Assembly: GCA_948467695.1 (NCBI GenBank)
Contig: CAOKFJ010000001.1
Coordinates: 1 to 28,100, forward strand
From: an uncultured Allobaculum sp.
GTDB taxonomy: Bacteria; Bacillota_I; Bacilli_A; Erysipelotrichales; Erysipelotrichaceae
Length of the DNA: 28,100 nt
Direction of reading: 5' to 3'
The notes beneath the pieces are model-generated. The model was given only the letters and a program-made list of their open reading frames with translations. It did no database searches and was not told the origin of the DNA. The position numbers and the translations under genes were made by a program. Positions 5 to 28,100 of the stretch are shown piece by piece; within the stretch, counting starts at the first letter, position 1; each line of letters starts with the position of its first letter.

Positions 5-952
5 ATGCCGCCATCCAAACCAACCGCATTCAGTGAATACCTGCATGCGCAGAACGCACGCATGCAGTACGACGATGCATGCAAACGGATTCTCGGCAAT
101 CCATGGATTCAAGCCTGGTTTTACTCAGAACTTACCGATGAATTTCGCGGACTTGATCCGGCTCACATCGTTGAAGAGTATCTGAGCAGACCAGATCGAT
201 GCAGAGAACTGAATCCGGAAGACCGAACGATTCCTGATCACCCTGTCATCTATGACAAGAGGTACCAGATCACTGCGCCCGCCGGCAGCGCGACAGATCA
301 GATCATTGTTCATTTCGAATTTCAAAATAACAGCTATCCCAAAGATATAAACAGATGGCGAATGGTATACAATAATTCCAGGTTGATCAGCGGACAGAAA
401 GGGACCGTCTTCCAGAACTCGAACTTCCATCAGATGCTTCGCACGTACTCGATCTGGATTTTCCCGCATCCTCCTGCCAAAGAAGCCAATTCCATCACGT
501 ACTATCCCGCCTACGAAAATCTCATACCGAAAGCGTATCCAGTAATTATAAAGATCTGTCTTGGCGAACCGGACTATCCAACCTATACTGACGTCCTCAA
601 ACTGCTCCATATTCTCGTTTCGCCGGAATACGACGCGAATCAGAAGTGCGGCATGCTCGAAAAGGAATTTAAAATTCCAATGACTGAAGAATTCAAGGAG
701 GAGATCGAAAATATGTGCAATGTAAGCGAATGGATCTATCAAACCGGTGTCGAAAAAGGCATTCAGACAGGGATTCAGACTGGATCCAGAAACACCATGC
801 TCATGTGCATCCGAAGTCTTATGAATGCGCTGAAAATAACCGCCCTGCAGGCAATGAGCATTCTTGCTGTTCCTGCAGATGAACAGCAGCAGTATCTTGA
901 CTTGCTCGCCTCTCCAGAGACAAACCGCATCGCGGATACACAGACGCACTGA
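5..952 (+). CDS. PD-(D/E)XK nuclease family (Rpn/transposase-like) protein
   Basis: A 315-residue protein resembling the Rpn/PD-(D/E)XK 'putative transposase' family, which is abundant and multicopy in gut Bacillota. The N-terminal part has the family layout: a YDDACKRIL-type opening near residue 22, then a short beta-rich core with D98 followed by the E-x-Q signature (E105, Q107, in VHFEFQ) that corresponds to the nuclease E-x-K/Q motif. The C-terminal part carries the tandem GIQTGIQTG stretch near residue 253 that is common in this family, then a helical tail. The ATG lies four bases from the window edge, so its ribosome site cannot be seen. A strong terminator follows at 984, so it appears to end its own transcript. 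Family members are thought to be recombination-promoting nucleases; activity here is inferred only. Confidence 0.75.
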   Translation: MPPSKPTAFSEYLHAQNARMQYDDACKRILGNPWIQAWFYSELTDEFRGLDPAHIVEEYLSRPDRCRELNPEDRTIPDHPVIYDKRYQITAPAGSATDQIIVHFEFQNNSYPKDINRWRMVYNNSRLISGQKGTVFQNSNFHQMLRTYSIWIFPHPPAKEANSITYYPAYENLIPKAYPVIIKICLGEPDYPTYTDVLKLLHILVSPEYDANQKCGMLEKEFKIPMTEEFKEEIENMCNVSEWIYQTGVEKGIQTGIQTGSRNTMLMCIRSLMNALKITALQAMSILAVPADEQQQYLDLLASPETNRIADTQTH

Positions 953-3572: not shown

Positions 3573-3823
3573 ACGTCAAATAGTCTTTCTTCAAAAGTTC
3601 TTGAATCTTCATCGTGAAATACAGAGAATGTTTTTATCAGCGATCTTCGTTCATCCTGATCCTGCGTCTGAGCTGACAATAGGATATTCCTATAACGAAC
3701 GCTGTCTTTATCGCGCATTGTAAAATAATATTTTGCTTGCTCGCTTATTTTTGTCACAATCACGTTAGAGACTTCCGCATTTTCTTCCTGCAGAAGCTGC
3801 CACTATTTAGAAAAGGAGACACT

Positions 3824-4714
3824 ATGTCCAAAGCATCCCCTCGCCCCGCTAAATCGGCTCCGAAGAAAAAAACAGCCAAACCGGCTGCCTCCCCTACTGA
3901 AAAAAAACGCGCGCCTCGTCCAAAACGCGCTGCGCTGATGAAAAAGAGACGCCGCCGCGCCCGCATCCTTGCTGCAAGCGGCATGACCATGATCATTGCC
4001 GCAACCGGACTGATGGGCTATGCCTGGTGGATCGACAGCAGTCAGCCCGGTCCTCTTGAGCCGCTGACTGAAAGCCTTGACTCCATTCCCCATTTACTGC
4101 AATGGGACCAGCGCTGGGGATATGTTCCCTACGGCACCGGCGATGGTAAGCAGCTGTGCATGTACTACACGGGCTGCGCGCCTACCTGTATGTCCATGAT
4201 CGCTTCCTATCTCAAACAGGATCCAGCGCTTACTCCGGTCGTGATGAGCGAGCTTTCAATTATGAATGATGATTATGAGAATGACCAAGGTACGAAAAAC
4301 ACATTCTTTGGTAATGTCTGCAACACCTATAATCTAGGTTATGAAGAACTAGGACAGGACGAGTCCGCCTTGCGCGCCGCTCTTGAACAAGGCAATCCTG
4401 TAATCATTAATGTAGGGGAAGGCGATTTTACTAAGAAAGACCATTTTATCGTAGCCGCCGGTATGGAAAACGATCAAATTCGAATTCTTGATCCCGGCGC
4501 GTACAGCACCTCGCATTTATGGAGTTTCGAAGATATTCTCAGGCAGACAAAAACTATGTGGTCTTTCTGGAATCCAAACGGCAATCCGCAAAATGAAGCG
4601 AATGATTTTTCAGCACCTGCTTCGCCGCAAAACGAGGATTCTTCCGACTATGGCTCTCCTGTCGATGAACCAGTTCCGTTCGATCCCGATCAGCCCTCTG
4701 TTCAGGGTGCGTAA
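3824..4714 (+). CDS. Membrane-anchored C39-like cysteine peptidase (first paralogue)
   Basis: A 296-residue protein. I chose the ATG at 3824 because AAAGGAG lies at 3812-3818. The N-terminus (residues 1-50) is strongly basic and Pro/Ala/Lys-rich, followed by one membrane helix (about 53-70), which puts the rest outside the cell. The extracytoplasmic part fits the C39-like peptidase family (peptidase_C39_2): a QWDQRWG motif (Q93, possible oxyanion residue), catalytic Cys118 in GCAPT, His207 in DHFIV and Asp223 in ILDPG. The C-terminal 45 residues form an acidic Pro/Ser-rich tail. The next gene downstream is a paralogue with the same architecture. Substrate unknown; such enzymes are thought to cleave peptides or cell-wall-associated proteins. 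There is no ABC transporter domain, so this is not a bacteriocin exporter. Confidence 0.85.
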   Translation: MSKASPRPAKSAPKKKTAKPAASPTEKKRAPRPKRAALMKKRRRRARILAASGMTMIIAATGLMGYAWWIDSSQPGPLEPLTESLDSIPHLLQWDQRWGYVPYGTGDGKQLCMYYTGCAPTCMSMIASYLKQDPALTPVVMSELSIMNDDYENDQGTKNTFFGNVCNTYNLGYEELGQDESALRAALEQGNPVIINVGEGDFTKKDHFIVAAGMENDQIRILDPGAYSTSHLWSFEDILRQTKTMWSFWNPNGNPQNEANDFSAPASPQNEDSSDYGSPVDEPVPFDPDQPSVQGA

Positions 4715-4763
4715 TCCGTCAATCAGGGAACGGCTTAAATCTGCATTTTCGCTCTCTCTTTCA

Positions 4764-4775
4764 TCCAATATTGGA
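4764..4775. promoter_or_regulatory. Palindrome with adjacent -10-like element before the second C39-like gene
   Basis: TCCAATATTGGA is a perfect 12-base palindrome. TATATAAAAT follows at 4781-4790 and contains a good -10 match. This suggests the second C39-like gene has its own promoter, possibly controlled at the palindrome. No convincing -35 box is seen. Confidence 0.35.
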
Positions 4776-4847
4776 AAAAATATATAAAATGGATCGGGAC
4801 GGCTTACTGCCTGTACCAGAACCTTATGCAAAACACAGGAGATTTAG

Positions 4848-6083
4848 ATGAACCTGAACGATCCGAAACGGAAACCTTCTCCAAAAGGGAATCCGCCTCG
4901 TATAAACATCAAAAAACTGCCCAAGTTTAAAACAATCAAGCTTAAAAAAATCAAGTTTAAAAAGCTGAAACTGAAGAAGATCAGATTAAAGAAGATCCGA
5001 TTCAGCAGCCCCATCATCAAAAAGCCGGCAGTTCAAAAGCCCGCCGATTTCGCACCGGAAACGAATTCATCCATGCGCAGAACGGGGTCGCAGACATCGA
5101 AAACCACTGCCGCAAAACGAAGAAAAAGGCGTTATCGCTACGATCGAATTGCACTGCTTGTCCTTGGCGCCGCCCTGATCATCAGTCTGCTTGGCTGGGG
5201 CGCATGCGCAGGTGGAAAAGCGCTTGTCCGGCATTTCCAGAAACAGGAACCAGCGATTTCCTGGAAACTGACCAGAGATGAGAAAAAATCGCTTGAAACG
5301 ATCACCTGCCCAGAGAACGTTCTTCCGCAGACATTCGATGCCATTCGCTCTTCAGCGCTAGATGAAGAAAGCGAATGGAACAAACAGGATGCATGGTTTC
5401 TGGCGCATATCTCTGAATTCGATGAAGATCTTCTTTCGTTCTACCTCAACGATCGGGACCGCGCAGATTTCGTTCATGAATGGCCCAATCGTCAGGCGTA
5501 TCAACAGCCGGCAGCGACCATCGGCGTCGCGCTCGATGAATTTCCCGGTCTGCTGCAATGGGATCTTGCGTGGGGATACCAGCCATATGGCGAATCCCTG
5601 ATCTACATCGCCGGCTGCGCACCGACCTGCATGTCCATGATCGCCTCATGGCTCAGACAGGATGAGACGATTACGCCTCGCGTCATGAGCGATCTCGCAA
5701 TTGAATACGGAGATTTCTATCCTGGTCAGGGAACCGGCATTGAATTCTTCGATCACGCCGCCGAGCGGTATGGTCTGATCGTTGAATCTTCCGGAACCGA
5801 TCCCCAATGGCTTCGTCAGATTCTCGCTGAAGGAAAACCGGTGATCTTCCATATGCTTCCCGGCACCTTCACCACCATTGGTCATTACATCATCGGCTAT
5901 GGTCTGGATGAAGAGGGAAAAGTGCTGATTAAGGATCCAAACTCCATCGCCCGCACAAATCAGACATGGGCGCTTGAAGACATTCTCGCTGAATGCGGCG
6001 GAAGCTGGACTTTCTCTTATCCAGAACAGTCTGTTCAGACTTCATCAGAAAGCAACACCATGCAGTCCGAATCAAATTCCTGA
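4848..6083 (+). CDS. Membrane-anchored C39-like cysteine peptidase (second paralogue)
   Basis: A 411-residue paralogue of the preceding gene. The ATG at 4848 follows AGGAG at 4837-4841. Residues 21-45 form a run of five-residue units, [F/L]-K-[K/T]-[I/L]-[K/R], giving an extremely basic cytoplasmic tail. One membrane helix follows at about residues 99-120. An extra domain of about 100 residues (about 125-225) precedes the peptidase core and is absent from the first paralogue. The catalytic set is complete: the QWDLAWG motif, Cys257 in GCAPT, His346 in GHYII and Asp363 in IKDPN. The C-terminus is a short Ser/Thr/Gln-rich tail. Extracytoplasmic location and cysteine protease chemistry follow from the family; the substrate is unknown. 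The duplicated pair may act on different substrates. Confidence 0.85.
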   Translation: MNLNDPKRKPSPKGNPPRINIKKLPKFKTIKLKKIKFKKLKLKKIRLKKIRFSSPIIKKPAVQKPADFAPETNSSMRRTGSQTSKTTAAKRRKRRYRYDRIALLVLGAALIISLLGWGACAGGKALVRHFQKQEPAISWKLTRDEKKSLETITCPENVLPQTFDAIRSSALDEESEWNKQDAWFLAHISEFDEDLLSFYLNDRDRADFVHEWPNRQAYQQPAATIGVALDEFPGLLQWDLAWGYQPYGESLIYIAGCAPTCMSMIASWLRQDETITPRVMSDLAIEYGDFYPGQGTGIEFFDHAAERYGLIVESSGTDPQWLRQILAEGKPVIFHMLPGTFTTIGHYIIGYGLDEEGKVLIKDPNSIARTNQTWALEDILAECGGSWTFSYPEQSVQTSSESNTMQSESNS

Positions 6084-6222: not shown

Positions 6223-9200
6223 TCACAATCGATGTCGTCTGCGCGCTTCAGTCACCGCAAGAACGCCGCCGCAAATCAGACAGATCAAACCTGTCGCGAC
6301 AAATCCTCCGGTTCCTCTTCCGCCTGTTTCAGGGGGAACAAATCCGGGCGCATTGACGATCGGAATGGAAAATTCACTCTGATCAGGATCAGCCGCTGTA
6401 TCGACCTCGTTTCCTTCGGGGTATCGAACTTCGAACGTATGTGTCTGTGTTTTATACGTTTCGCGATCCATGATCGGAAGCAGCGTTTGCGTATTCAGTT
6501 CGTATACATAATACTTTCCTTCGCGAACCAGATCGGTTATCGCAAGAACCGCTGTTTCTTCTGTTTCGTCTTCTTCAACCGTGATGCTGCCCGTTTTCAC
6601 AAACTCCATGCCTTCCTGATAAGGCGCTTTGTACACACCAAACATATAGATTCCCGGTACGACGGGATTTCCTGTCCCGAAACTCTTTTCAATGGATAGA
6701 GAGCATCGGGGCTTTCGGTTGAAGACATGCATTTCAATTTTCTGCCCATGCTGCGCTCTCCATATATTTTCCGAGGGAAGATTTTGGGGAGGAATGTAAC
6801 CCTCCTCGTCCCGCTTATCAAAGTACGCATACTGCACACTCGGCTCGAATACATATCCTTGGGGCGCTTTGATTTCCGTGATTCGGTACAAAGTATTGAA
6901 TTTCAGGTTCTGGTCGATGCGAAACATGCCGTCCGCGCCGGTTGTGAATACGCCCAGATCCGTAATGACCTCATGATCATCGATTCGAATCTCCTCCACT
7001 TGAAACTCTGCTCCCGGAAGTTTGAGCATCGCGTCATCCTGGTCGATTTTACTGAGAACGAGGTTTTCAGATGTTGTGGAAATCGAATCGCCGCTTGCTG
7101 CATAGGTGAAGCTTTCAACAACTTCGCGAACAGGGGCATCATGCCCGATGCCAATCCACGAAGCGCGGTTGGTCACTGAAACCGTCTGTCCGGGAAGAGC
7201 GTTGATCGTCGCAAAATACGTCACATGGATTTTCTTCTCATCGGGCAGACCGGAAATCTGAAGGGTACGCATGTTTTCTTCATCGCTGTAGGAAATCTTA
7301 TACCCCTCAAGAGGACTGCCGTTTCCATCGACGACTCTGATGTCGTCCGGACTGATGCGCATGACATTTTTATCGTAGGTATCGATGAGTGTGATTGTTT
7401 CAACATTGGGAATCAGATCGATCCCGTTTTGGTTGAGAATGATTTCGAACTTCATTTTCTGCGGTCCGTGCTTCTTCTTTTCCGCATCGCTCATCTCTGC
7501 TTTTCCCTTGTACAGAGCGCCTTTGATTTCCATCGGCAGCGTGTCCTGGGAATACGAGATCTGCGCATCGCCGTTGTACACTTTGACCGTATTGAGCAGA
7601 TTCTGCTTATTCTCCTCCAGTTGTTCGATCAGCGTATTCCAGTCGGTTGTGCATCTGGTGATGATATGCAGAGTGACTTTTTCACGCAGCTGAATGCCGG
7701 ACACTTCGATGCGCACTTTCTGATGTCCATCGACCTCGGTGACTTTCACGTTCTCGATAATCGGTGAGGCAAGGGGATAAGAAACCGTATCATCCGCATC
7801 CTGAGTCAGAAAACATCCGGTGTATTCCTGCGAAGCATCCAGTTCGTCCACATACACAAAAGTGCCTTGGTTGGGATACTGATCTCTCGAGTCGGTGGAA
7901 TACGGATTGGTGCTGATGCGCCAGTCCACATAGGCATAATTCTTTTTCATTTCAAGATTCTGTCTACGAATTTCTTCATCCAGAATCGGTTTCATCACTT
8001 CACGATTTGTATAGGGACGCAAATCTACAGTGCCAATCGGATTTGGAGCCGGATCCTCCTGTTTGGAGTCCATGATTCTTACGCCATCATCGTTCCAGGT
8101 GAATGTCTCGCCCCAGTTTTTACGCACGACACAATAGTTGCGAATCGGAATTCTCGCATCGCTCTGTCCCTCGAGCGACTGAGTGCCCATACGAAAAGCG
8201 GAGGTGTTGTTGAAGGTAAAGCTGAACTTATTGCGGTCATAATGCCATTTCACATTGCCTGCGACATTGATGGCCGAGCGCAGAGCAATGTACAGATGCT
8301 CGTCTTCGCCAAGGATCTGGTGCTCTTCAAATTCCAGATCAAGCACCGTATTGTTCGTGCCGGAAAGCAAAATCGAATAGTTAGAAGGATCGATTTTTCC
8401 TGTTTCAAGCCGGCTGAACACTTTGTCGTAGATTTGAGGATCGCGTCTTGTCGGATCGTTTGCCTGAAGCCGATCAAAACCGGCAAAAGGTGCCTGCGAA
8501 AAATCTTCCGTGGATTTGTATACCCCGATCACTGCGTCATCCTTGAAGGATGTACCATAGTTTGCCGCTTGTCTTCCCAGATCGTCATGAACAACTGTGC
8601 CGGAAGGAATCAGGCTTCCATCCATCCGGATCAGCCATACAAGACTTCCATAGGGATAGCCGTCGCGCGGCAGGTCGGGATCGCGTACGCAAAGTCCCAC
8701 TTTATCCATTTCCAGATGCATGTCCGAAGCTGTGAAACTTGTCACCTTCTTCGTCACTTCGAAAGGCAGAACGCCATTGCCGATACCGATATTGGCTCCG
8801 GTGATCGTATTGCTTAACACCGAAGCAACCGGAACGGCTGTCATCGGTTTGACATAATATTTCAGTTCAAAAGAGAGATGCACATTTTCTGCAAGCGCCT
8901 CGTTTGCCTGACGTATAGCCGGATAATCTGCAGGAATAAATTCAAACTGATCTTCGCCTTCAGGAAGCTGAATAAACACCGTATCCGCAGGCTGATCATT
9001 TTGCATACGCGCACCGGCATAGAGATCCACCTGCACAAATCCGGTATAGCCATAGTCCGTCTGCTTCTCATCGTTCAAAGACAAGGTGTCTGTAAACCGG
9101 GCATGAAATACATCGCCCGTATTCTCTTCATTGATCGCAATGCGGTATCCAAAAGATAAGGGCGGAAGCACAAACGAATCGATATTCAGCAGTGTTCCAT

Positions 9201-11139
9201 CTCTTGCGTACACCGCCTTTCCATTCATCGAAACTTCGACTGGCGCTTCGATCTTCTCATCAAGTTTGACCTTTTCCATCCACTCCGTGCCTTCGATCTT
9301 CGTGTTCACGATTGAATTGACAAAGTACTGGCCACTCACACGATCGGACGTATTGCGAATATACGCTTCATTGCGGAAGTTGAGCGTATCAGTCTGTTCA
9401 AGCGCCATGACTTCGCGAATCGTTTTGTCGAGTCTGACCTGATAGTTGAGTTTGACCTGCTCGCCGGGCTCCATTGCCCCCACAGAAAAACTGCACAGCG
9501 CGTTTCCTTTGTCCAGACCAGCAATCGGTTCAGGCGCCGGCAGCACAAGATCATCCGGACCGGGAGCGTGCCCGATCGCTTTATAGAGTTCTACAGACTC
9601 AGGAAGGACAGAAATTTTATCCTTATGCTCTTTGAGAAAAATATCCGTCTGATACTTCTGAAAACCGAGCATGTCATTGAGAACGATGTTATCAAACCGG
9701 TAGTCGTTATCTGCCAAAGCAGACGCGAGCACACTGAAATTCAGAAGCAGGTTTCCATGCTGATCATTGCTCATCGATACAAACGTCTTTTTAATCGAAA
9801 TCCGGGAATTTAGAATGGCGTCAGCTGATGCTCTTTCCGTTTTGGGCGTCTGAGAACATAAGAGCTGCGCATTGTTGGTCATGACATCCTTTCCGCCTAT
9901 CAGCATTTCTGTATCGATCATGATCGAATACTTCAGACGATATCGGGTGTTCTTCTTCAGCAGTCCGAGATACACGCTGAATCCATCTGCAGGGACCGGA
10001 TGACGGACGCTCTGGTTCTGGAAGTTTTCATACACCAGTTCCGTACCCATCGCATATCCGTCTGAGGGCTCAGGCGGCATCATGTTTTGAGGATTGAGAA
10101 CGATCTGAAACCGGTCATTGCCGGCAAGAGGAATTTCATCGCCGTCCTCGCCTTCGATCAGCCGCATGCTCGAGGGAACAAACCAGCATACCTCTTTGCG
10201 CGATGTCATAAAATCATCGATGATCGCATCGGGAAACGGATTGGCGCCTGTGGTAAAGTCCGTAACGAAATCAGCCTGCACGCGTCCATCATCCAGACGA
10301 TGCATTCCCTCAGCGTGCAGGGAAGTGTCCAGATCTTTCGAAAAATTGTCCGCTGAAGCTCCGTTTTCAATCGAACCCGGATCAATGGTCAGAATGTAGT
10401 CGGTATCACCGACCGTGATATGCGGATCGCTGTCTTTAAAGTATTCATCGAGGTCGAGTCTGGCACTGACAAAAAACGTCCCTTCGCTGATCGTCTCGCC
10501 GATGATATTCGCATAGCGGTCCATGTGAACGTGCACATGACCGGGATTGGCGGGACAGGATTTGAGCGCGCCGATGATTGTCTGATGCTGCTCGCCGCCA
10601 ATTGTATCGGTATGCGTCAGTTCGCCACCGATGATATCGTCCTCCGTGCTTTCCAGAATGCGGGGCATCGGATAGACATACTTGCCCTCGTTTGCCTGCG
10701 CTATTTCTGCTTTGCTCAGATTGGCATATCTGACACGTGCCGCCAGCTGTGATTTCTCATTAAGCACAACGTCGCTGGTATATTCCGTCCATTCCGTATC
10801 GCCCTCGTTTTTGTAGACAAGAACCTGACTGGTGATTCGTTCTGACGGAAAAGGGATCGAAAATCCGCAGCTGTCCTTCGCCTCTTGGAGTAGGGAGTCC
10901 GGCGCTTCTTTTTTCATGGTGCCGTCTTCATCTGATTTTTGGGAAGAGTCTGATGCAAAAACACTATCCCGACTCGCTTCTTTTTCTTTGGCTTCTATGA
11001 TTTCCGGCACACCCGGCCACGACATTCCCGTGCCAGAAACCGCCAGCGAACATGCCATAGCAGCATAGACGAGCAGCAAGACGATGCGGTTAAAAAAATG
11101 ACGGCTGCCGCCGGATGATCTGCATTTTTCCTTCTTCAT
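6223..11139 (-). CDS. Large LPXTG-type cell-wall-anchored adhesin with SpaA/Cna-B domains
   Basis: A 1638-residue surface protein. I place the start at the ATG at 11139, nine bases after GAGGG; a TTG two codons upstream is too close to that site. A basic N-terminus and hydrophobic stretch (about 17-37) form an export signal. A long beta-rich ectodomain (about 60-1350) has no obvious short repeats and resembles the repeated isopeptide or adhesin modules of large Gram-positive tip proteins. A SpaA/Cna-B domain begins near residue 1359 (LVLSKID... ITEIKAPQGY). A second Cna-B-like segment begins near 1478 (CSLSIEKSF). The cell-wall sorting signal is VPPETG at 1601-1606, then a membrane helix and an ARRRHRL tail. 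The variant P-P-x-T-G motif is typical of pilin and adhesin classes. No sortase lies nearby, so it must be anchored by an enzyme encoded elsewhere. Role in adhesion is inferred. Confidence 0.9.
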   Translation of the reverse strand: MKKEKCRSSGGSRHFFNRIVLLLVYAAMACSLAVSGTGMSWPGVPEIIEAKEKEASRDSVFASDSSQKSDEDGTMKKEAPDSLLQEAKDSCGFSIPFPSERITSQVLVYKNEGDTEWTEYTSDVVLNEKSQLAARVRYANLSKAEIAQANEGKYVYPMPRILESTEDDIIGGELTHTDTIGGEQHQTIIGALKSCPANPGHVHVHMDRYANIIGETISEGTFFVSARLDLDEYFKDSDPHITVGDTDYILTIDPGSIENGASADNFSKDLDTSLHAEGMHRLDDGRVQADFVTDFTTGANPFPDAIIDDFMTSRKEVCWFVPSSMRLIEGEDGDEIPLAGNDRFQIVLNPQNMMPPEPSDGYAMGTELVYENFQNQSVRHPVPADGFSVYLGLLKKNTRYRLKYSIMIDTEMLIGGKDVMTNNAQLLCSQTPKTERASADAILNSRISIKKTFVSMSNDQHGNLLLNFSVLASALADNDYRFDNIVLNDMLGFQKYQTDIFLKEHKDKISVLPESVELYKAIGHAPGPDDLVLPAPEPIAGLDKGNALCSFSVGAMEPGEQVKLNYQVRLDKTIREVMALEQTDTLNFRNEAYIRNTSDRVSGQYFVNSIVNTKIEGTEWMEKVKLDEKIEAPVEVSMNGKAVYARDGTLLNIDSFVLPPLSFGYRIAINEENTGDVFHARFTDTLSLNDEKQTDYGYTGFVQVDLYAGARMQNDQPADTVFIQLPEGEDQFEFIPADYPAIRQANEALAENVHLSFELKYYVKPMTAVPVASVLSNTITGANIGIGNGVLPFEVTKKVTSFTASDMHLEMDKVGLCVRDPDLPRDGYPYGSLVWLIRMDGSLIPSGTVVHDDLGRQAANYGTSFKDDAVIGVYKSTEDFSQAPFAGFDRLQANDPTRRDPQIYDKVFSRLETGKIDPSNYSILLSGTNNTVLDLEFEEHQILGEDEHLYIALRSAINVAGNVKWHYDRNKFSFTFNNTSAFRMGTQSLEGQSDARIPIRNYCVVRKNWGETFTWNDDGVRIMDSKQEDPAPNPIGTVDLRPYTNREVMKPILDEEIRRQNLEMKKNYAYVDWRISTNPYSTDSRDQYPNQGTFVYVDELDASQEYTGCFLTQDADDTVSYPLASPIIENVKVTEVDGHQKVRIEVSGIQLREKVTLHIITRCTTDWNTLIEQLEENKQNLLNTVKVYNGDAQISYSQDTLPMEIKGALYKGKAEMSDAEKKKHGPQKMKFEIILNQNGIDLIPNVETITLIDTYDKNVMRISPDDIRVVDGNGSPLEGYKISYSDEENMRTLQISGLPDEKKIHVTYFATINALPGQTVSVTNRASWIGIGHDAPVREVVESFTYAASGDSISTTSENLVLSKIDQDDAMLKLPGAEFQVEEIRIDDHEVITDLGVFTTGADGMFRIDQNLKFNTLYRITEIKAPQGYVFEPSVQYAYFDKRDEEGYIPPQNLPSENIWRAQHGQKIEMHVFNRKPRCSLSIEKSFGTGNPVVPGIYMFGVYKAPYQEGMEFVKTGSITVEEDETEETAVLAITDLVREGKYYVYELNTQTLLPIMDRETYKTQTHTFEVRYPEGNEVDTAADPDQSEFSIPIVNAPGFVPPETGGRGTGGFVATGLICLICGGVLAVTEARRRHRL

Positions 11140-11317
11140 GGTCAAATTCCCTCTTCCGTTCAGAATCTTCGAACGGATTTCTCTCTTTCTTTATCGAAAA
11201 CATTCAAACGATTGTTCTTTTTTCCTTCGTCAGCCGATTTTTCACGCGTATTCCTTTTGCATTCTAAACACGTGTGTTTTCTGTACATTCGATACTTATT
11301 TTAAAACACACACTATC

Positions 11318-14104: not shown

Positions 14105-14282
14105 ATCCCCGCCTGTTCAGGAAAGCAATCGTTTCCTTTTCCTGACAGGAGATCCGCTTCCGACTTGAATTAAAGTCTGAAAAAGCGTCGTTCAGAAAAG
14201 CCGCATGTCTCAAGATTCAAGATGCGCCACCCTTAAAAGATGTCTTATCTGGCATCGACTTTCATATAGAGAGCGTTTTTCC

Positions 14283-14295
14283 TACAATCTGTTTA
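14283..14295 (+). promoter_or_regulatory. Predicted leaderless promoter of the 1339-residue protein
   Basis: A -10 TACAAT at 14283-14288 is followed after exactly six bases by the ATG at 14295, so transcription should begin at or next to the start codon. A weak -35 (TTCATA, 14261-14266) lies 16 bases upstream. There is no Shine-Dalgarno sequence. The paralogue at 18605 has the same arrangement. Confidence 0.5.
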
Positions 14296-17200
14296 TGACC
14301 AAAATTTATTTCGAGCTGAAGCTCACCAGCTTTTCAGCCCTTCCATATACACCCGCATGTCAGCAGCTCTTTGATGCCATCGACCAGGCTTCTTCTAAAA
14401 TCTGGGACGGCGATACGCTGCTTGATCCCTGCGAACCGCTTCCTTTCTCTGCTTCAGGCGATGAAGCCATTCTTCGTCTGCAATGCACGGAAGCCGACAC
14501 CCTCATGGATTTTCCTGCGCCCTGTGCTATTGAATACACCTTTCTTGGACGCACTGTGCGCTTTTCACTTAAACCCGGCACTTCCTTTGCCAATGCAAAA
14601 TGCGCTTTTGCGCTGATTCTTTCCGTGCTGACCAGCCCTCAGGATCCCTTTGTTCTTCACGGCGATCATCTCGGAATCGCCAACGGGGATATTCTGTGTC
14701 ATTTTGATACACCCTATACACAGAAGCTTCGCAAAGACCTTGAAAAAAAGAGAACTCTTTCTTCGAACATTCGCTCTCTGCAGCTGGAAGCCGAGCGCCT
14801 TGGCGCAATGCAGATGGATCTGCGAAGAAAAAACGCCAAATCGTATATTCGCAAAAAAGGCGAATGGACACCGCGCGACTCGGCCAGACTGCATCACGCC
14901 ATGCAGAAATCCAATGCGTGGAAAGCAGCGCAGCACGCTCTGGATTCAATCGACAAGGAATGCCGCACCTATGCTCTGCAGGTGATGGAGCTTTCTCATT
15001 CAACCAGCATTGTCTCCAATGCGCTGCCCCGACTGATGCACTATGCAATCGCTCAGACGCTGAATGACGCCGAAGGATTCGACGAACTGTTTGCTTATCT
15101 GATCGGCGGCAATCTGGATGGCGCAAAAAGCGTGATTTCCGGCGCGCTTGCCGACAAATGGATCAATCAGTCGCTCCAGCTCAAACTCGAATGGATCTAC
15201 GCGCAGATCCTCATGTGCGCGGCAGACGGCAGTTTCAACGAAAAAACACTCGCGCAAATTATGCCGCTGTTTCAGAACATCAGCATTGTGCACATCGAAA
15301 CTCAGTTCGATGACTGTGTCGAGCTTCTGGATGCGTGCCTGAGCGAGCTGATCGCTCTGTGCATGGATGCCGGCATTGCGCCAGCGCTGATGGACGTGCT
15401 TCGCCTATACAGCGCGCTCTACGATCCCGCAAGCGGACCGTTCGCGCAGCCGACAAATCTGTATCTGTATGCCTGCATCGGCGGCGCAGGCGACGCAATT
15501 CAAATGAATGCCGATCTGGCCAATCTGTATGATCTCGACACGGCGCTCGATACGCTTTACACACTGCGCGATTTCGACAGCATTGATCCGCAGACACGCC
15601 CTTATGCCATTCTTGCCGCATGCTCGCTCATTGCGATGATCGGACCCGACTATTTTGGAGATCTCAAACCTGTACTCGACCGGCTGATGACCTATGTCGC
15701 GGAGGACCTGTTTGACGAAGACAGCCTGGAGCCATGGAAACTGCACTGCACGCTGGTGCTGTTCAACTCCATGCTTATGCTGATCGAAAATGAAGCCGAA
15801 ATTCTCAGCGTTAATGAATCGCTTCAGTGGCTCGGCGCTATACGTTCGAGCCTGAGCATGCGCACGCGCCGCATGGGATGGTCCCATCCGGAAGAACTGC
15901 GCATTCTCATTCTCTGCACCCTGATTCTGTGCGACTTTACCGGCGATCCGCATGAAGGGCTCGCCATACCCCAGATTCTTCGCGATGCGCAAAGCCAGCT
16001 TCCCGGCGTGATGGACATGATGTCCATGTTCGGTCTGAACGGGTATATCGAAATGATGAGTCAGACCGGTATTGCGCCCTCCGTTGAAAACGATCCGTTT
16101 GAAGCGTTCAGTTCCGTCATGCTTCGCGCAGTCAGCGGCATGAGCGACGACGAACTCGATCAGATGGCTGAAATTCTCTGCACATCCGCCGAACAGCTCG
16201 TCGACTGGAGCTTCTTCGATACTGCACGCGTTGTTCTCAACAAAATGTACAAGCTGATCGAGATGATGCCGCAGCAGGAGCTTCTACCTCCCGACTTTGG
16301 CAGCTGGCAAGCCGCAAAAGATCCGTTCGATACAACGGATATGCAGTTTCCCGGCGATCTGGGCACATCTTCATCATGGAGCGAACAGCCGATCAGCCCC
16401 AGCATCGACTGGTCGCAAAGCGAAAGCTCTTCCGACTCTGGATACGACTATCCGCCGTTCGATCCGGAATTCAATCCCGCACAGGACCCGGCATTCAGCG
16501 ATATCTATCCCGCTGACTCCAAAGAAGACTTTGATGCCGATTTCGGTATCGGTTATGACACACCGTATTCCTCTTCGCAAAATCCGTCCGATCTGCTTGA
16601 GCCGGATTTCATGATGGACAATCTGCCCGAAGGACTCGAGGGCGCTCCTGTTCAGGATCCTTTGCGCACTCTCATTCACGTGTTTGGGAAATACATTGAA
16701 CTGTGCCCGATCGGTCATGAACACGCCTCATTCATGACCATGCTCATGCGCGGATGCGACCTTGCGCGCACGCTCTATCTCGAAGACGAGAGCGCATTCT
16801 ACTCTGCGCTCTGCACATGGACTGCCGCGATTGACCGCATGATCGATCATGGTCTGAAGGAACCTGCGCTTATCGCGATGAACAAAGCGCTCGAAATTCT
16901 CGACCACGCCCAGAATATGGATATCGCTCTGCATCTGCGCGACGCCCTGCAGAAAAAAGCGTGGGATCAGATGCTCAGCGTCTACAGCACGCTTGGCGGC
17001 GGCTACATCGAAAAAGGCCGCACACTGGCAAACAAGATCATTTCCGACACCGACCTGCACAATCTGCAGCTGTATTCGCAGGAGGATCTTCTGGTCGTTC
17101 TGCAGGCTGTAAACTTCCTGCTTCGCCACGAAACATCACCCGAACAGTTTTCCGCATACATTTCGATGCTTGAACTGCTCAAACGCCCCGCTCTGCAGGC

Positions 17201-18314
17201 TGAATCCGGAAGTCCGCTCATGCTGCGCTTTCTCAACGTGTGCACCGACGGACTCAAAAGCGCGTATAAAATCGCTGACGCAAACGCCGCCGCTTTCTTC
17301 AAGCAGTCGCAGAAAGAACTGTTCCCCGATCTGCCTCCCTTTGTGGAAATGGCGCTCGGCACCGATACCGAAGCGATGCTTGAGCTTTGCGAAGAGCTGA
17401 AAATGGAACTCCCGCTTCTGATGAAATATCCGCTCATGGCGCTGTTTACTGACATAAATGTGACGTATCCATGCCCTGATCCGGATTGGAAGGAACTGGA
17501 ACAGAAACTCTGCGACACCCTGAACGGTTCGCCGGTTGAAGACTGGCAGGATCTGTTCATCGCTCTTTCCGGCAATCTTGAACGGATCTACACAACAGTG
17601 GACTTTGTCCAGCTTGCGCTGCGCGAATACGACTATCTCGAAGCGCAGTCGATGATTCCCCGGCTCGAGTCGCTGACCGGCAAAAATCTGAGCCGTCTTA
17701 AACTGCGCATGGATCTGTTCGACTGCATCGGCACTGAACTCGAAAACGAAAGCGATGATCCGGATGCCCGTCTGAAGCGTGAGGAATATCTGCTCAATCT
17801 CCATCAGGCAAGAACAGCGCTCGATGCGCATGGCGATCAGGATCCCAACGAGCCGGACGTCCTTCTTCTGTCCTACTTTGTCGACTGCCTGTTTGCTTTC
17901 CACTACATCACCAATTCGAATGTATTCATGAGCCAGCGCTATCTGGATATTCTGTCGCGCAAAATCTCCATTCTGCCCGACGCCTTCTTCAATACAGCAG
18001 CCAGAGCACTGCTGTATCTTCACCTTGGCTTTATCGCCTATCGCCCGGGCTGTCTGGCAAATACAGATACTCCGGAATCCATCGAGCAGGCATATTCTCT
18101 GTGGCAAAGCATTGAAGAACCGCTGATCAACCGTCTGGATCTGATGCTGCTAAGCGCTGTTCTCAATGCGATCGCCGATGCGACGGAAGCCGTTTTCGAA
18201 GAATGCGGACTGAACGTGATGAGTCCGGACAATCTTTCGAAACACTTCCATGCCCTGCAAAACTGGCAGGAAGAACTCAAAGATCTTCTTGCCGACGATA
18301 CGAAAAGCGCCTGA
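14295..18314 (+). CDS. Giant protein of unknown function, first copy of a paralogous pair
   Basis: A 1339-residue protein that I do not recognise. I chose the ATG at 14295 because its N-terminus (MTKIYFELKL) aligns without offset with the paralogue (MNVDYYILTV), and because a -10-like TACAAT ends six bases before it. An in-frame ATG at 14205 has neither support nor a ribosome site. Visible parts: an N-terminal alpha/beta domain (1 to about 135), a charged coiled-coil-like helix region (about 140-230), and a long all-helical segment. An acidic Asp/Ser/Pro-rich low-complexity linker (about 665-785) then leads to a second long helical segment. No signal peptide, membrane helix, Walker motif or catalytic motif was found, so it is probably cytoplasmic. 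The helical parts suggest a solenoid-like scaffold, which is inference. It is divergent from comEA and ends at a strong terminator. Confidence 0.85.
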   Translation: MTKIYFELKLTSFSALPYTPACQQLFDAIDQASSKIWDGDTLLDPCEPLPFSASGDEAILRLQCTEADTLMDFPAPCAIEYTFLGRTVRFSLKPGTSFANAKCAFALILSVLTSPQDPFVLHGDHLGIANGDILCHFDTPYTQKLRKDLEKKRTLSSNIRSLQLEAERLGAMQMDLRRKNAKSYIRKKGEWTPRDSARLHHAMQKSNAWKAAQHALDSIDKECRTYALQVMELSHSTSIVSNALPRLMHYAIAQTLNDAEGFDELFAYLIGGNLDGAKSVISGALADKWINQSLQLKLEWIYAQILMCAADGSFNEKTLAQIMPLFQNISIVHIETQFDDCVELLDACLSELIALCMDAGIAPALMDVLRLYSALYDPASGPFAQPTNLYLYACIGGAGDAIQMNADLANLYDLDTALDTLYTLRDFDSIDPQTRPYAILAACSLIAMIGPDYFGDLKPVLDRLMTYVAEDLFDEDSLEPWKLHCTLVLFNSMLMLIENEAEILSVNESLQWLGAIRSSLSMRTRRMGWSHPEELRILILCTLILCDFTGDPHEGLAIPQILRDAQSQLPGVMDMMSMFGLNGYIEMMSQTGIAPSVENDPFEAFSSVMLRAVSGMSDDELDQMAEILCTSAEQLVDWSFFDTARVVLNKMYKLIEMMPQQELLPPDFGSWQAAKDPFDTTDMQFPGDLGTSSSWSEQPISPSIDWSQSESSSDSGYDYPPFDPEFNPAQDPAFSDIYPADSKEDFDADFGIGYDTPYSSSQNPSDLLEPDFMMDNLPEGLEGAPVQDPLRTLIHVFGKYIELCPIGHEHASFMTMLMRGCDLARTLYLEDESAFYSALCTWTAAIDRMIDHGLKEPALIAMNKALEILDHAQNMDIALHLRDALQKKAWDQMLSVYSTLGGGYIEKGRTLANKIISDTDLHNLQLYSQEDLLVVLQAVNFLLRHETSPEQFSAYISMLELLKRPALQAESGSPLMLRFLNVCTDGLKSAYKIADANAAAFFKQSQKELFPDLPPFVEMALGTDTEAMLELCEELKMELPLLMKYPLMALFTDINVTYPCPDPDWKELEQKLCDTLNGSPVEDWQDLFIALSGNLERIYTTVDFVQLALREYDYLEAQSMIPRLESLTGKNLSRLKLRMDLFDCIGTELENESDDPDARLKREEYLLNLHQARTALDAHGDQDPNEPDVLLLSYFVDCLFAFHYITNSNVFMSQRYLDILSRKISILPDAFFNTAARALLYLHLGFIAYRPGCLANTDTPESIEQAYSLWQSIEEPLINRLDLMLLSAVLNAIADATEAVFEECGLNVMSPDNLSKHFHALQNWQEELKDLLADDTKSA

Positions 18315-18400
18315 TCCACGTTACGTCTCAAAACGTTTCTGCATTCATATTTCCGCATGGATCAAGACGCCAGTCGCCTTTTCAAACCTTCATACAAGCC

Positions 18401-18436
18401 AAAACGGAAAGCCAGATCACGGCTTTCCGTTTTTTT
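18401..18436 (+). terminator. Intrinsic terminator between the giant paralogues
   Basis: AAAACGGAAAGCC (18401-18413) pairs with GGCTTTCCGTTTT (18421 onward) over a 7-base loop and ends in a T tract. It separates the two paralogous genes into different transcripts. Confidence 0.92.
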
Positions 18437-18592
18437 GCGCATGGAACACAAAAGGAAGAACTCAGTAAGGATAATTTCCAATCTTATTAAAACGATCATT
18501 CAATTATATTTAGCTATTATTTTACAGTATGAAATCGGCGTGTTTTTTTATAGTATTTTTTTATTTTTATTTCCATAGACATGTCGATTATC
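18437..18592. other. Strongly AT-rich intergenic segment
   Basis: About 150 bases made mostly of A and T, in contrast with the roughly balanced composition of the flanking genes. It contains no ORF worth calling and lies directly upstream of the second giant paralogue, so it probably carries that gene's promoter region. Confidence 0.5.
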
Positions 18593-18605
18593 TACACTTG
18601 AAGCA
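18593..18605 (+). promoter_or_regulatory. Predicted leaderless promoter of the second giant paralogue
   Basis: TACACT at 18593-18598 is followed after exactly six bases by the ATG at 18605. A weak TTTCCA lies 17 bases upstream (18570-18575). No Shine-Dalgarno sequence is present. The layout matches that at 14283-14295. Confidence 0.45.
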
Positions 18606-19207
18606 TGAATGTTGATTATTATATTTTGACGGTTGATCCCGATCAGCCCGTTTACAGTAGCGAGATGTGGAAAAATCTCGCCACCAGACTCAGCTGCTCC
18701 ATGCAAGCGGCAAAAAACGGCGAAGAACCATTTTTCCTCTCTGCATCAGATGATCTCTGCGCAGGGGATGTATCGCCGTCCTCTTGTGCTTGTGCTGTGC
18801 AGATGCGCATCGTCTATGAACTGGACACGTCAGCGCAGATCTCCATACCAAAGGAAATCCAGCTCCTGCGCGATGAAACGCTCATGCGCTTTCCTCTGCC
18901 AGAGGACATTCAAGACGAAATGCTTGCGGCTGCGTTTATCCTCATCCTTGCCTCGCTGCTCGATCAGACTCATCTTTTTTCCGTCCGCAATGGAAAACTT
19001 ATATTCGACAATGAGCCTCTGCTTTCGTTTGGCCTTCAGATTACAGACATCAAAAAAGAGAACGGAGAAAAAGAAAACCTGTCTGTAACTGATCCGAGCA
19101 AAGAAAAAGAAGACTGCCTCGCTCGACTAAAGACACTTCAATCCGAAGACAGCCGTCTGAACGGCCAGCTCGATGAAATACGCGAAAAAGCATTCGAACA
19201 GCTGTAA
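18605..19207 (+). CDS. N-terminal fragment of the second giant paralogue
   Basis: A 200-residue product if translation stops at the TAA. It contains the N-terminal alpha/beta domain (about 1-150) that aligns with the first 135 residues of the 14295 protein, then a Lys/Glu-rich helix. The start is supported by co-linear alignment with the paralogue and by the -10-like hexamer six bases upstream. No known family is recognised. It could be a stable domain by itself, but the end of the ORF lies in the middle of a predicted helix, so truncation is more likely. Confidence 0.6.
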   Translation: MNVDYYILTVDPDQPVYSSEMWKNLATRLSCSMQAAKNGEEPFFLSASDDLCAGDVSPSSCACAVQMRIVYELDTSAQISIPKEIQLLRDETLMRFPLPEDIQDEMLAAAFILILASLLDQTHLFSVRNGKLIFDNEPLLSFGLQITDIKKENGEKENLSVTDPSKEKEDCLARLKTLQSEDSRLNGQLDEIREKAFEQL

Positions 19208-19264
19208 GCCAAAAAGAAGATTCAAGCCTATTCACGCCAGACGTCCAAAGAAATTCATCTTTCC

Positions 19265-21091
19265 ATGGCAGACAACCCGCAATACTCCAAAGCGCTTTTT
19301 CACCAGGCAGAACGCATCAGAGAACTGAAAAAAGCCTCCCGCGACTACCACGCCGCAAAACTTGCCGACTCGCGCAAGTCCAGCGCGAAGCTTCGCTTCC
19401 TTCTCTTTTCGATTCGGCATGCTCTTTCCGGTGACAGCCATTTTGATCTGCTTGTGCAGCATCTTCTGCGCCCTGTAACAGATATCGAATGCGTTTCCCG
19501 CTTTATTGACACCTGTTCGCACGAGCTTTCTTCGTCCGATGACATCGACGAATGCACTGCATGGCTGCTTGCTGGATTATTCATCAGCGAACTCAGCGCG
19601 AAGAACAGTCCGTACAAAAACATCCTGTGCTTTACCGACGCTCTCCATGGTCTGTACTTCAAAGGTTTGCGCAATACTCAAAAATGCGCAGCAGGAACAT
19701 ATGAAGACTATCTAGGCCAGATCGCTCCCGAAAAACGGATATTCGCATTGCAAAGTCTTGCTGAATGTCTGGAAGAGCTGATGATTCTCCCGCTGGAATT
19801 CAATGTTCCAGGCGAGGCGCCCTTCTGGATTCTTCAATCGATCCACTGGCTTCTAAAAGGACAGGATGCAAATCCATCGTTTGATCTTCATCTGCTCGGA
19901 ACAGCCGCCTGCTGCAATTCGGCAAAACTTGGAGAAGAGATCCGCCAGATGCTGCTCGATCCCGAGTTTGCGTTCCATATGTGTCTTCCCCTCCTTCCAA
20001 GCTCTGCGCTCGATCCTGCCCTGCTTCCCTGGCTTGCTTTATCGCTTTGCGGCTATATGAAACACTTCAAAAACACGGATGAGCTCCTCTATGCAGTGCT
20101 GGATATTCTCGAAACACTTTCCGACCCGGAAACTCTGGAAACCCCTATCGAAAGCTGGAAGGCAAATGCGTACATACACTTCTTCAATCATGTGGTCACC
20201 TTCTTTATGAGCACAGAAGAAACACGTTCGATGTATGAAGCTCTAGAATGTCTGCTCGCCATAGAGAGCTGGATTCAGAAGCGTGTTTATCTATACGGCT
20301 GGGAGACACTGGATGAAGTGAATTTGTTTATCCGCTGCGCGAGCTGCCGCAGTCAGATCCGCATGCGAAGCAGTGATGCAGAACTGCTCGAAAAATGGAT
20401 CTTCTCTCCTTCGCCTCTGTCCGCGGCTTCAGCTTTTCCCGCGCTTGTCGAGCGCGAATGTCTGTATGCCATCGCCACTTCAATACTGATCAAAGAAAGC
20501 GCGAAAACAGCCATTGCGTTTGAGGGCGATCTGTATGAACAGTTCAATCGAGCGGTTTTTCGCCTGCTGGCAGCAGAATCGAAACTCCCCTTGCGCCTTG
20601 AACAGATCGACAGACTCTGCTCGCTTACGGCAATCGCCCCCTCGATTGTGCAAGATGACATGTCGCAAGCAGCGGATGAAGTTCTTCACCTCAATTTCAG
20701 CACTGCATCCATGCGAAGAAACATTGAAGACCTCCTCGATGAGAAGAAAGCCGCATGCCCCGATGCCGGTGGACTGAGCGCAATTCGCTTTGTGCTTAAC
20801 CTTCTTTTTGCCTTTCAGGCGACTGCCTCCAGCGATGCACAGATCTCTCTGCGCGTGCTTGAAAACATCGCCAGTCCGTTTGTCGACAGGGAAAAAGGTT
20901 TCCCTGAACATATTCTTGCTTCCCGCGTCTCTTGCAGCCTTTTGAACGAATCGATCTTCAATGCAGCAAAGTTAAATTCGAATGCATCGTGCCAGAAAAC
21001 GGATATCACCGACTTTCCTTCCCTGTCCAGCATGGCCAAACTGATCAGCGCCTTGCTTGAAAAGACAGAAAACGATTCGATCCCGGAATAA
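19265..21091 (+). CDS. C-terminal part of the second giant paralogue
   Basis: A 608-residue open frame from the first ATG after the TAA, in the same frame as the upstream fragment. The ATG has no Shine-Dalgarno sequence, and homology to the 14295 protein extends upstream of it to the stop codon, so it is unlikely to be a true start. The product would be almost entirely helical, with leucine-rich helices and several Cys residues and no signal or membrane segment. It aligns with the helical segment before the acidic linker and with the C-terminal part of the first copy. No family recognised. Confidence 0.6.
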   Translation: MADNPQYSKALFHQAERIRELKKASRDYHAAKLADSRKSSAKLRFLLFSIRHALSGDSHFDLLVQHLLRPVTDIECVSRFIDTCSHELSSSDDIDECTAWLLAGLFISELSAKNSPYKNILCFTDALHGLYFKGLRNTQKCAAGTYEDYLGQIAPEKRIFALQSLAECLEELMILPLEFNVPGEAPFWILQSIHWLLKGQDANPSFDLHLLGTAACCNSAKLGEEIRQMLLDPEFAFHMCLPLLPSSALDPALLPWLALSLCGYMKHFKNTDELLYAVLDILETLSDPETLETPIESWKANAYIHFFNHVVTFFMSTEETRSMYEALECLLAIESWIQKRVYLYGWETLDEVNLFIRCASCRSQIRMRSSDAELLEKWIFSPSPLSAASAFPALVERECLYAIATSILIKESAKTAIAFEGDLYEQFNRAVFRLLAAESKLPLRLEQIDRLCSLTAIAPSIVQDDMSQAADEVLHLNFSTASMRRNIEDLLDEKKAACPDAGGLSAIRFVLNLLFAFQATASSDAQISLRVLENIASPFVDREKGFPEHILASRVSCSLLNESIFNAAKLNSNASCQKTDITDFPSLSSMAKLISALLEKTENDSIPE

Positions 21092-27182: not shown

Positions 27183-27413
27183 TCATGTGTACAAATACTT
27201 CTCTGCCTGCTTCTGCGCATCTCGAAAAATGTTCAACACGCTTTGCGCCGCATCCTCAATCGAGCCGGGCTGTTCAAAGTCAATGCATGGACTGGATATC
27301 CGCTCCTGAAGAGTTCTGTTTTCCTGGCGCAGAGCAGCAATCTTCTTCTGCTGCCAGGAAGCGATCGCAATCAGATCGTTTTTCTTCAGTTTATGTATCT
27401 GCTTGGGCGTCAT
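27183..27413 (-). CDS. Small coiled-coil protein
   Basis: A 76-residue cytoplasmic protein. Residues about 8-38 form a basic coiled coil (KKNDLIAIASWQQKKIAALR...), followed by a conserved-looking C-terminal motif, GSIEDAAQSVLNIFRDAQKQAEKYL. This resembles the G-S-I-A-E-A-x-L...VFEAAQxAAxxYL motif of small uncharacterised Bacillota proteins. Its ATG overlaps the stop codon of the upstream surface-protein gene in an ATGA arrangement, so the two are translationally coupled. The upstream gene encodes a pilin-like surface protein, which suggests a linked envelope role. Function unknown. Confidence 0.75.
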   Translation of the reverse strand: MTPKQIHKLKKNDLIAIASWQQKKIAALRQENRTLQERISSPCIDFEQPGSIEDAAQSVLNIFRDAQKQAEKYLYT

Positions 27414-28100
27414 TCATGTTCCGCTTTCTTGCGATAAGCAATCCCTGCCAGAGCGGATGCCCCCAGTGCGGCGATCAGAAACAGACCGCCAAGAAGCGCG
27501 GCATGTTCAATTACCGCGGTATTCACATCGCTCTTGCCTTTGGGTTTGGAAGAAGATGATTTCGAACTGGATTTCGATTTCGACCGGGAACTTGACTTCG
27601 AATTGGACTTGCTGCTCGAACGGCTAGAAGAAGCTGACGATTTTGAAAAAGATGAAGACGACGCGCTCGAAGAATAATCTTCTTCGAGTATCGTTTTCGG
27701 AAGCGCTCTGACGTCAAACGCATACTCGCCATTTTCGTCAAGACGGGGAATGGAAAGCAGAAAAGGGGCGATATCTCTAAATCCTCTGATGCTTGCTTTC
27801 TGCCGAATGAGATACAGTCCAGCGGGCAGATTCTGGCATGCTGCCTTTCCCTGTCGTATCAGGTGGACTGTCCCTTTTATTCGTTTTTCTCTTGCATAGC
27901 CGTCAAGTTCGCGCGCTGTTGTCTGATGCATCAGGTTTTCAAGAGGCATTTTTTCATCACGGAATGCTTCCGTATATACAAATCCGCTTTTTGACACTCC
28001 GGATGCATCCAGATCGGCAACACGGATCAGTTCAATCGAACCGGAGTCGAGTTTCCTGTGTCTGTATTCAAAAATCAGCGTAATGCTTCCTGTCCTTATC
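27410..28100 (-). CDS. Pilin-like surface protein, partial at the window edge
   Basis: The frame is open to the last base of the window, so the start lies outside; a GTG at 27997 is internal. The visible 229 residues begin with a beta-rich segment (SITLIFEYRHRKLDSGSIELIRVADL) and continue with FRDIAPFLLSIPRLDENGEYAFDVRALPK. Both resemble the prealbumin-like/Cna-B folds of small Gram-positive surface proteins. A stalk of about 50 residues, almost only Ser and Lys with a few Arg and Ala, follows. One membrane helix (ALLGGLFLIAALGASALAGIAY) and a KKAEHE tail end the protein. No LPxTG-like motif lies between stalk and helix, so it may be retained by the helix alone. The stop codon overlaps the start of the coiled-coil gene. 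Confidence 0.75.
   Translation of the reverse strand, partial: IRTGSITLIFEYRHRKLDSGSIELIRVADLDASGVSKSGFVYTEAFRDEKMPLENLMHQTTARELDGYAREKRIKGTVHLIRQGKAACQNLPAGLYLIRQKASIRGFRDIAPFLLSIPRLDENGEYAFDVRALPKTILEEDYSSSASSSSFSKSSASSSRSSSKSNSKSSSRSKSKSSSKSSSSKPKGKSDVNTAVIEHAALLGGLFLIAALGASALAGIAYRKKAEHE

What the first reader, a model, noticed from the sequence alone, without database searches (positions are those of the whole stretch)
14295..21091. Pair of giant paralogous proteins of unknown function
The 1339-residue protein at 14295 and the interrupted frame at 18605-21091 share co-linear similarity at the N-terminal domain, the helical regions and the C-terminus. Neither has a recognisable family, signal, membrane segment or catalytic motif. 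The first copy carries an extra section of about 500 residues, including an acidic low-complexity linker. A tandem duplicated, very large helical scaffold of this kind is unexplained. This is the best candidate for an undescribed system in the window.
Basis: partly seen in the sequence, partly recalled or inferred. Interest (0 to 1): 0.75.

Follow-up and report, generated by a model that had tools for sequence, protein, structure and literature searches.

The report
Giant leaderless solenoid proteins of Allobaculum
Gut bacteria of the genus Allobaculum carry an undescribed, fast-changing family of very large, mostly helical proteins, probably intracellular docking scaffolds, whose genes appear to be read from messages that begin directly at the start codon.

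Summary
Giant 1 (14295-18314, 1339 aa) is intact; giant 2 (18605-21091) is a diverged paralogue broken by TAA at 19205-19207. Similarity is strong in the middle, weak at the N-terminus, marginal at the C-terminus. No credible family match (Pfam, NCBIfam, PHROGs, PADLOC, PDB sequences). The genome belongs to Allobaculum; the family was found in 3 of its 5 genomes held and in 3 of 315 of the order, including a 1293-aa hypothetical protein of A. mucilyticum. The tandem pair is not the natural unit: pieces of a third copy lie on two other contigs, beside adk and beside rpsM. Modest-confidence models show an alpha/beta head, a coiled-coil hairpin and an alpha-solenoid (to about residue 610); the rest is unmodelled. 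Best reading: a genus-restricted, fast-evolving, probably non-enzymatic cytosolic scaffold or adaptor family, each gene a stand-alone leaderless unit. The partner is unknown; the pilus neighbourhood is suggestive only.

The parts
14261..14288 (+). promoter-like site of giant 1: TTCATA, 16 nt, TACAAT; TACAAT ends exactly 6 nt before the ATG at 14295
   Evidence: the region as a whole holds no excess of promoter-like sites: 5 found, 6.5 expected
14295..18314 (+). giant 1: 1339 aa, intact, net charge -101, no membrane segment
   Evidence: start supported by P0001
14295..14708 (+). N-terminal alpha/beta head of giant 1 (residues 1-138), with W-D-G at 37-39; residues 115-141 low confidence
   Evidence: shared with A. 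mucilyticum, G136 and giant 3
14709..15062 (+). predicted coiled-coil hairpin (residues 139-256)
15063..16274 (+). predicted alpha-solenoid (residues 257-660), about eight two-helix units by my count; helices after residue 613 have pLDDT under 50
   Evidence: few changes between giant 1 and P0001 (14 of 404)
16275..16664 (+). acidic linker (residues 661-790), most changed between giant 1 and P0001 (17 of 130)
16665..18311 (+). C-terminal part (residues 791-1339), not modelled; last ~280 residues shared with A. mucilyticum and with the C-terminal fragment on contig C149
18401..18436 (+). intrinsic terminator after giant 1
   Evidence: -19.5 kcal/mol, 0 of 200 shuffles as good, T-run; not listed by the scan
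18570..18598 (+). weak promoter-like site of giant 2: TTTCCA, 17 nt, TACACT; TACACT ends exactly 6 nt before the ATG at 18605
   Evidence: below the threshold of the scan
18605..21091 (+). giant 2: diverged paralogue, 200 codons, TAA at 19205-19207, then 627 codons in the same frame
   Evidence: profile matches span the TAA
21443..21465 (+). intrinsic terminator about 350 nt downstream of giant 2

Best explanation
A lineage-restricted family of very large, acidic, probably non-enzymatic cytosolic adaptor or scaffold proteins. Each gene is a stand-alone unit whose -10-like box sits 6 nt before the ATG (inferred: the mRNA starts at or next to the start codon and is translated without a Shine-Dalgarno site); the two window copies also have their own terminators. 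The protein would present an alpha/beta head and a coiled-coil hairpin on a long alpha-solenoid whose surface binds partner proteins. Its sequence drifts fast while size, start layout and, in most members, acidity persist, as expected if the partner also changes fast (a phage or surface component). Shown by sequence: family, range in the genomes searched, copies, start layout, acidity, missing P-loop. Predicted at modest confidence: head, hairpin and solenoid to about residue 610. Inferred only: cytosolic location, protein binding, partner, role.
For: Relatives at about 17-25% identity; giant 3 matches the family profile from its first residue, E 1.8e-15. Starts: 5 of 5 readable members have TANNNT (4-6 of 6 to TATAAT) + 6 nt + ATG; 27 of 6008 ATGs on both strands of ten loci do; shuffles give a product of 1.1e-8, 1.5e-7 after 13 offsets. 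The criterion was set after four starts were seen; the fifth (giant 3) is the only fresh test, chance about 0.03 by its own shuffles. The layout recurs in the genus: RlmA in G000 and G060, a membrane-anchored protein in both, a response regulator in G060 and G003. Fold: pLDDT 61, pTM 0.50 for residues 1-690; 68, 0.53 for 1-262. Constraint: 83 differences between giant 1 and P0001 are uneven (chi-square p 1.5e-5; region limits partly chosen after the bins): 1006-1206 1.5%, solenoid 3.5%, 791-1005 5.6%, coil 6.8%, 1207-1339 9.0%, head 12.3%, linker 13.1%. No Walker A or ABC signature in 8 of 8 sequences.
Against: The models rest on 5-6 rows; pLDDT is under 50 from residue 614 of the longer model, and the C-terminal half is not modelled. 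Structural matches are generic. No partner or operon link. Giant 2 (TAA) and the G136 copy (frameshifts) are broken, so the family may be dispensable. The -35 elements are weak: 4 of 6 in giants 1 and 2, 3 of 6 in giant 3, 2 of 6 in the other two. A GAGGAA lies 17 nt before the A. mucilyticum ATG, outside the range scored and probably too far to act (my reading of the sequence shown there). A loose PD-(D/E)xK-like pattern occurs in 3 of 8 sequences at unrelated places and a CxxC in one. Giant 2's longer part and the C149 fragment are less acidic (about -3 per 100 residues). No RNA data.
Confidence: 0.5

Rival explanations
1. A cytosolic helper or regulator of the neighbouring sortase-pilus/adhesin island (SpaA-type adhesin, pilins, sortase), for example holding pilus components before export.
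For: The nearest SpaA-type gene lies about 3-5 kb from a giant at 3 of the 4 loci seen: window (adhesin 6223-11145), A. mucilyticum, G136. SpaA matches in G060 and G136 fall in about three clusters each. In G136 the giant lies near the island although the ALDH gene is about 480 kb away.
Against: Giant 3 lies beside adk; no pilus gene seen on those two short contigs. G003 and G116 have SpaA proteins but no detected giant. Orientation differs and transposase-like genes lie between in two genomes. Synteny may simply be inherited.
Confidence: 0.15
2. An anti-phage or anti-mobile-element protein: a solenoid sensor or scaffold in an arms race.
For: Giant 24% identical to A. mucilyticum over its length against 69% for ALDH and 73% for the lysozyme-like protein; patchy presence, copy-number change, broken copies; transposase-like genes beside it in two genomes (named by sight).
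Against: PADLOC: no hit for 4 of 5 sequences at E up to 0.5, one partial match (E 0.0027, to a methyltransferase model) for the C149 fragment. No effector domain or defence neighbours seen. The adhesin is as diverged (25%), pilin-like 34-38%, thioredoxins 41-49%.
Confidence: 0.15
3. A decaying gene family without present function; open frames survive by chance or recent duplication.
For: Giant 2 has an internal TAA; the G136 copy is broken; none detected in G003 and G116.
Against: Open frames of 1339, 1293 and at least 999 codons, uneven substitutions, shared start layout. The G136 assembly looks error-rich: other genes there are broken too.
Confidence: 0.12
4. A Rad50/SMC-like protein: sheet-bearing head with a coiled-coil hairpin.
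For: Foldseek ranks Rad50 heads first, cohesin and condensin heads soon after, for the N-terminal model.
Against: Best E 1.4e-3, none at or under 0.001; TM-scores 0.09-0.29, rmsd about 14-19 A; no Walker A and no ABC signature in 8 of 8 sequences.
Confidence: 0.02

Closest known systems
Alpha-solenoid adaptors and scaffolds (importin-beta, LGN/Pins, AP and COPI subunits appear in the list)
   Same: predicted superhelix of two-helix units of about 41-52 residues (my count); acidic; no P-loop
Bacterial leaderless (TA-led) genes, PMC3160421 (passages seen)
   Same: TANNNT about 12 bp upstream of the start codon, counted from the first T; no Shine-Dalgarno site nearby
   Different: that paper is a genome survey (it includes a Firmicute, Lactococcus lactis); here the layout is kept within a fast-diverging family of giant proteins
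Hypothetical protein of Allobaculum mucilyticum (P0002; strain 128 chromosome NZ_CP078089.1)
   Same: same family, 1293 aa, same start layout, beside a pilus island and ALDH
   Different: 24% identical, one copy found, no counterpart aligned to most of the acidic linker

Membership tests
alpha-solenoid repeat proteins (TPR/HEAT/ARM) | tandem antiparallel helix pairs stacking into a superhelix | tested here: met
   AlphaFold model, residues 260 to about 610, block pLDDT 39-87; helices from 614 on under 50; residues 691-1339 not modelled
alpha-solenoid repeat proteins (TPR/HEAT/ARM) | match to a repeat profile in Pfam | tested here: not met
   0 families for giant 1 at E up to 5; none credible for A. 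mucilyticum, G136 pieces, giant 2 and the C149 fragment. So solenoid-like, not a named repeat family
bacterial leaderless genes | TANNNT about 12 bp upstream of the start codon | tested here: met
   5 of 5 readable family starts
bacterial leaderless genes | no Shine-Dalgarno site | tested here: met
   best match to AGGAGG 2-3 of 6 within 3-14 nt of the ATG in 5 of 5; A. mucilyticum has GAGGAA at 17 nt
bacterial leaderless genes | mapped transcription start at the start codon | not testable with these tools
   no RNA data
Rad50/SMC ATPases | Walker A and ABC signature | tested here: not met
   absent from 8 of 8 family sequences or pieces
STAND-type or other P-loop regulators with helical repeats | P-loop NTPase domain | tested here: not met
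   no G-x4-G-K in 8 of 8, no such Pfam domain
sortase-anchored surface proteins | signal peptide and LPxTG plus membrane anchor | tested here: not met
   no strongly hydrophobic segment, no LPxTG
known anti-phage systems (PADLOC) | match to a defence protein model | tested here: not met
   no hit for 4 of 5 sequences at E up to 0.5, one partial hit (E 0.0027) for the C149 fragment

The most novel reading that the evidence does not exclude
An undescribed protein family: giant acidic solenoid scaffolds with a W-G alpha/beta head, spread in Allobaculum as stand-alone leaderless cassettes into separate chromosomal sites, kept translatable when Shine-Dalgarno initiation is reduced (stress or phage attack), and evolving fast against a changing partner: a lineage-specific stress or defence scaffold.
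Probability: 0.15. Interest if true: 0.65.

Novelty: new variant of a known kind. Interest (0 to 1): 0.42.

Why it matters
Allobaculum is a gut genus (recalled). It carries a family of very large proteins with no relatives outside the genus in the searches made here; they differ between species about as much as a neighbouring surface adhesin, yet appear to keep a leaderless start. If so, they are a natural set of long leaderless genes in a Firmicute and a clear test of why leaderless initiation is kept for particular genes. A binding partner would show what these scaffolds do.

Tried and rejected
Look-ups without a credible hit: Pfam (best E 0.025 for a giant-2 piece, below its cut-off), PHROGs (best E 0.048), PADLOC (E 0.0027, C149 fragment), NCBIfam (none), PDB sequences with two profiles (41: one at E 0.053; 42: none). 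Three protein searches gave one hit each: P0001, P0002, P0002; each scored about 8000 candidates only, and one search missed P0001 although it was a row of the query, so absence there is weak evidence. Genome-contig scan: 217 stretches, 1 relative, A. mucilyticum strain 128. IMG/VR: 88 stretches, no relative. Plasmids and phages, protein mode, giant 1: no match; phages by DNA with giant 2: no match.

Hits in G192 and G174 (E 0.003, 0.008) lie in frames that look like metal-binding (ZnuA-like) lipoproteins by sight: rejected as chance. A hit in G136 with the C-terminal profile (E 0.013) was not pursued.

Idea that each species has a giant after adk: rejected for four genomes. The adk-rpsM gap is about 1.2 kb in G060, 0.43 in G003, 0.46 in G116 and 3.6 kb of other, broken frames in G136.

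Fold searches: generic solenoids, coiled coils, Rad50-like arrangement; none stands out. Papers: 13 hold 'Allobaculum mucilyticum', none about this protein by title and abstract start (56); some found none; 101 and 103 listed five each, none on point by title and abstract start; none of these was opened.

Full report
WHAT IS THERE. The window (G000:C1:1-28100) lies in a 1.99 Mb, 315-contig, 68% complete genome. Its genus is Allobaculum: genome G060, given as same genus, carries the protein held as A. mucilyticum P0002, and its contig length equals that of NZ_CP078089.1. Giant 1 (14295-18314) encodes 1339 aa. Giant 2 (18605-21091) is one frame broken by TAA at 19205-19207. Codon usage scores highest in the stated frame for giant 1 and both long parts of giant 2. 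A strong terminator follows each (in the scan terminator-like sites as such are not in clear excess, 12 against 9.9), so they are probably separate units rather than an operon.

HOW ALIKE ARE THEY. Residues 429-617 of giant 1 match giant 2 at 22% identity, E 4e-9; 0 of 1000 shuffles reach the middle score. The N-terminal part: 2 and 3 of 1000. The coiled-coil part: 69. The C-terminus: 10 and 23, against 32 for a non-co-linear comparison. Giant 2's N-terminal piece against the G136 member: 0 of 1000; against A. mucilyticum: 159 of 1000. Paralogues, then, firm in the middle.

HOW FAR THE FAMILY REACHES. A profile of five rows found 3 of 315 genomes of the order at E 0.001 or better, all in this genus; rows of the profile match by construction. 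In the family 5 of 272 passed E 0.01, two of them rejected as chance. Within the genus 3 of 5 genomes have members: the window's, A. mucilyticum (one intact, 1293 aa) and G136 (one broken copy). G003 and G116 gave none at E up to 10; a member diverged beyond detection, or in a missing part of an incomplete assembly, is not excluded. P0001, 94% identical over 1339 aa, is the only close relative found.

A THIRD COPY. A profile of six rows found contig C206, E 3.6e-8. There the end of secY and adk (named by sight) are followed by a 999-codon member open to the contig end, matching the profile from its position 1 to 633, E 1.8e-15 for one sequence searched. Contig C149 carries a C-terminal piece (284 codons, open at the contig end), then a DUF5648 protein, rpsM, rpsK, rpoA and rplQ (named by sight). 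In G003 and G116 adk and rpsM are about 0.45 kb apart. I infer that C206 and C149 hold the two ends of one giant 3 inserted between adk and rpsM; they were not joined.

THE START SITES. The five readable starts share one layout: giant 1 TACAAT, giant 2 TACACT, giant 3 TACAAT, A. mucilyticum TATAAT, G136 TATACT, each followed by exactly 6 nt and ATG. No AGGAGG-like site better than 3 of 6 lies within 3-14 nt of the ATG; A. mucilyticum has GAGGAA at 17 nt. Among the ATGs on both strands of ten loci 27 of 6008 have such a box at that distance; among 77 long-frame starts 4 do, three of them family members and the fourth a frame antisense to ftsH; giant 1 was counted there at its upstream ATG and so missed; at 7 nt 3 of 77 starts have a box, at 5 nt 1 of 77. 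Shuffles give 1.1e-8, or 1.5e-7 after 13 offsets, but the criterion was set after four starts had been seen; the fifth, giant 3's, is the one fresh test, chance about 0.03. A survey defines bacterial leaderless genes by TANNNT about 12 bp before the start (PMC3160421, passages); PMC12340547 reports this arrangement as a promoter for leaderless mRNA in Deinococcus-Thermus (listing and passages). The layout recurs in the genus: of 17 exact TATAAT-N6-ATG sites in two genomes (8 for the pattern read backwards), 7 open frames of more than 200 codons: RlmA in both genomes, an orthologous membrane-anchored protein in both (50% identical), a response regulator, the A. mucilyticum giant, and a PPIC-domain frame not judged. 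A response regulator in G003 that looks like its counterpart has TAAAAT-N6-ATG.

THE PROTEIN. Net charge is -101 (giant 1), -100 (A. mucilyticum), -47 for 659 residues of G136, -40 for 999 of giant 3, -16 for 200 and -21 for 627 of giant 2, -8 for the 284 of C149. W-[DT]-G at residues 36-41 is in 4 of 5 N-termini and missing in giant 2. AlphaFold on 1-690 (6 rows): pLDDT 61, pTM 0.50; on 1-262 (5 rows): 68 and 0.53. Both show the same strands and helices to residue 112 and a helical hairpin (about 140-256); the longer model adds a solenoid, confident to about 610 and under pLDDT 50 from 614. Structure comparisons give common helical arrangements only. Between giant 1 and P0001 the 83 differences are fewest in 1006-1206 and the solenoid, most in the head and linker.

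NEIGHBOURS AND RATE. The window's SpaA-type adhesin (6223-11145), the A. mucilyticum pilus locus and the G136 pilus locus each lie about 3-5 kb from a giant; on giant 3's two short contigs no pilus gene was seen. The giant is 24% identical to A. mucilyticum over its length, like the adhesin (25%); others of the locus: pilin-like 34-38, thioredoxins 41 and 49, AI-2E 58, ALDH 69, lysozyme-like 73.

VERDICT. A real, undescribed family, found only in Allobaculum here, most likely of intracellular scaffold or adaptor proteins with leaderless expression. The scaffold role is inference; the leaderless start is well supported by sequence but unproved without RNA. Partner and role are open; the pilus and phage readings are both alive.

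Noticed in passing
L028 (G060:C1:1439387-1439668): The A. mucilyticum SpaA-type adhesin related to the window's adhesin shows a TAA inside a SpaA-domain match, so a large gene near a giant is interrupted there too.
   Followed up: partly
window 3737-6083: Two adjacent proteins with C39-like peptidase domains between ftsH and the adhesin.
   Followed up: no
window 5-952: 315-aa protein without a Pfam hit at E 0.001; by eye it resembles transposase-like nuclease proteins; not tested.
   Followed up: no
window 27410-27997: Ser-rich protein similar to pilin-like proteins beside sortases in A. mucilyticum and G136, suggesting that a pilus island continues past the window.
   Followed up: partly
L038, L048, L041, L042, L045, L068:5626: Other apparently leaderless genes in the genus: RlmA, a small membrane-anchored protein, a response regulator.
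   Followed up: partly
L060 and L004; L067: The adk-rpsM interval of the ribosomal cluster takes insertions: giant 3 and a DUF5648 protein in the window's genome (inferred), unrelated broken frames in G136.
   Followed up: partly
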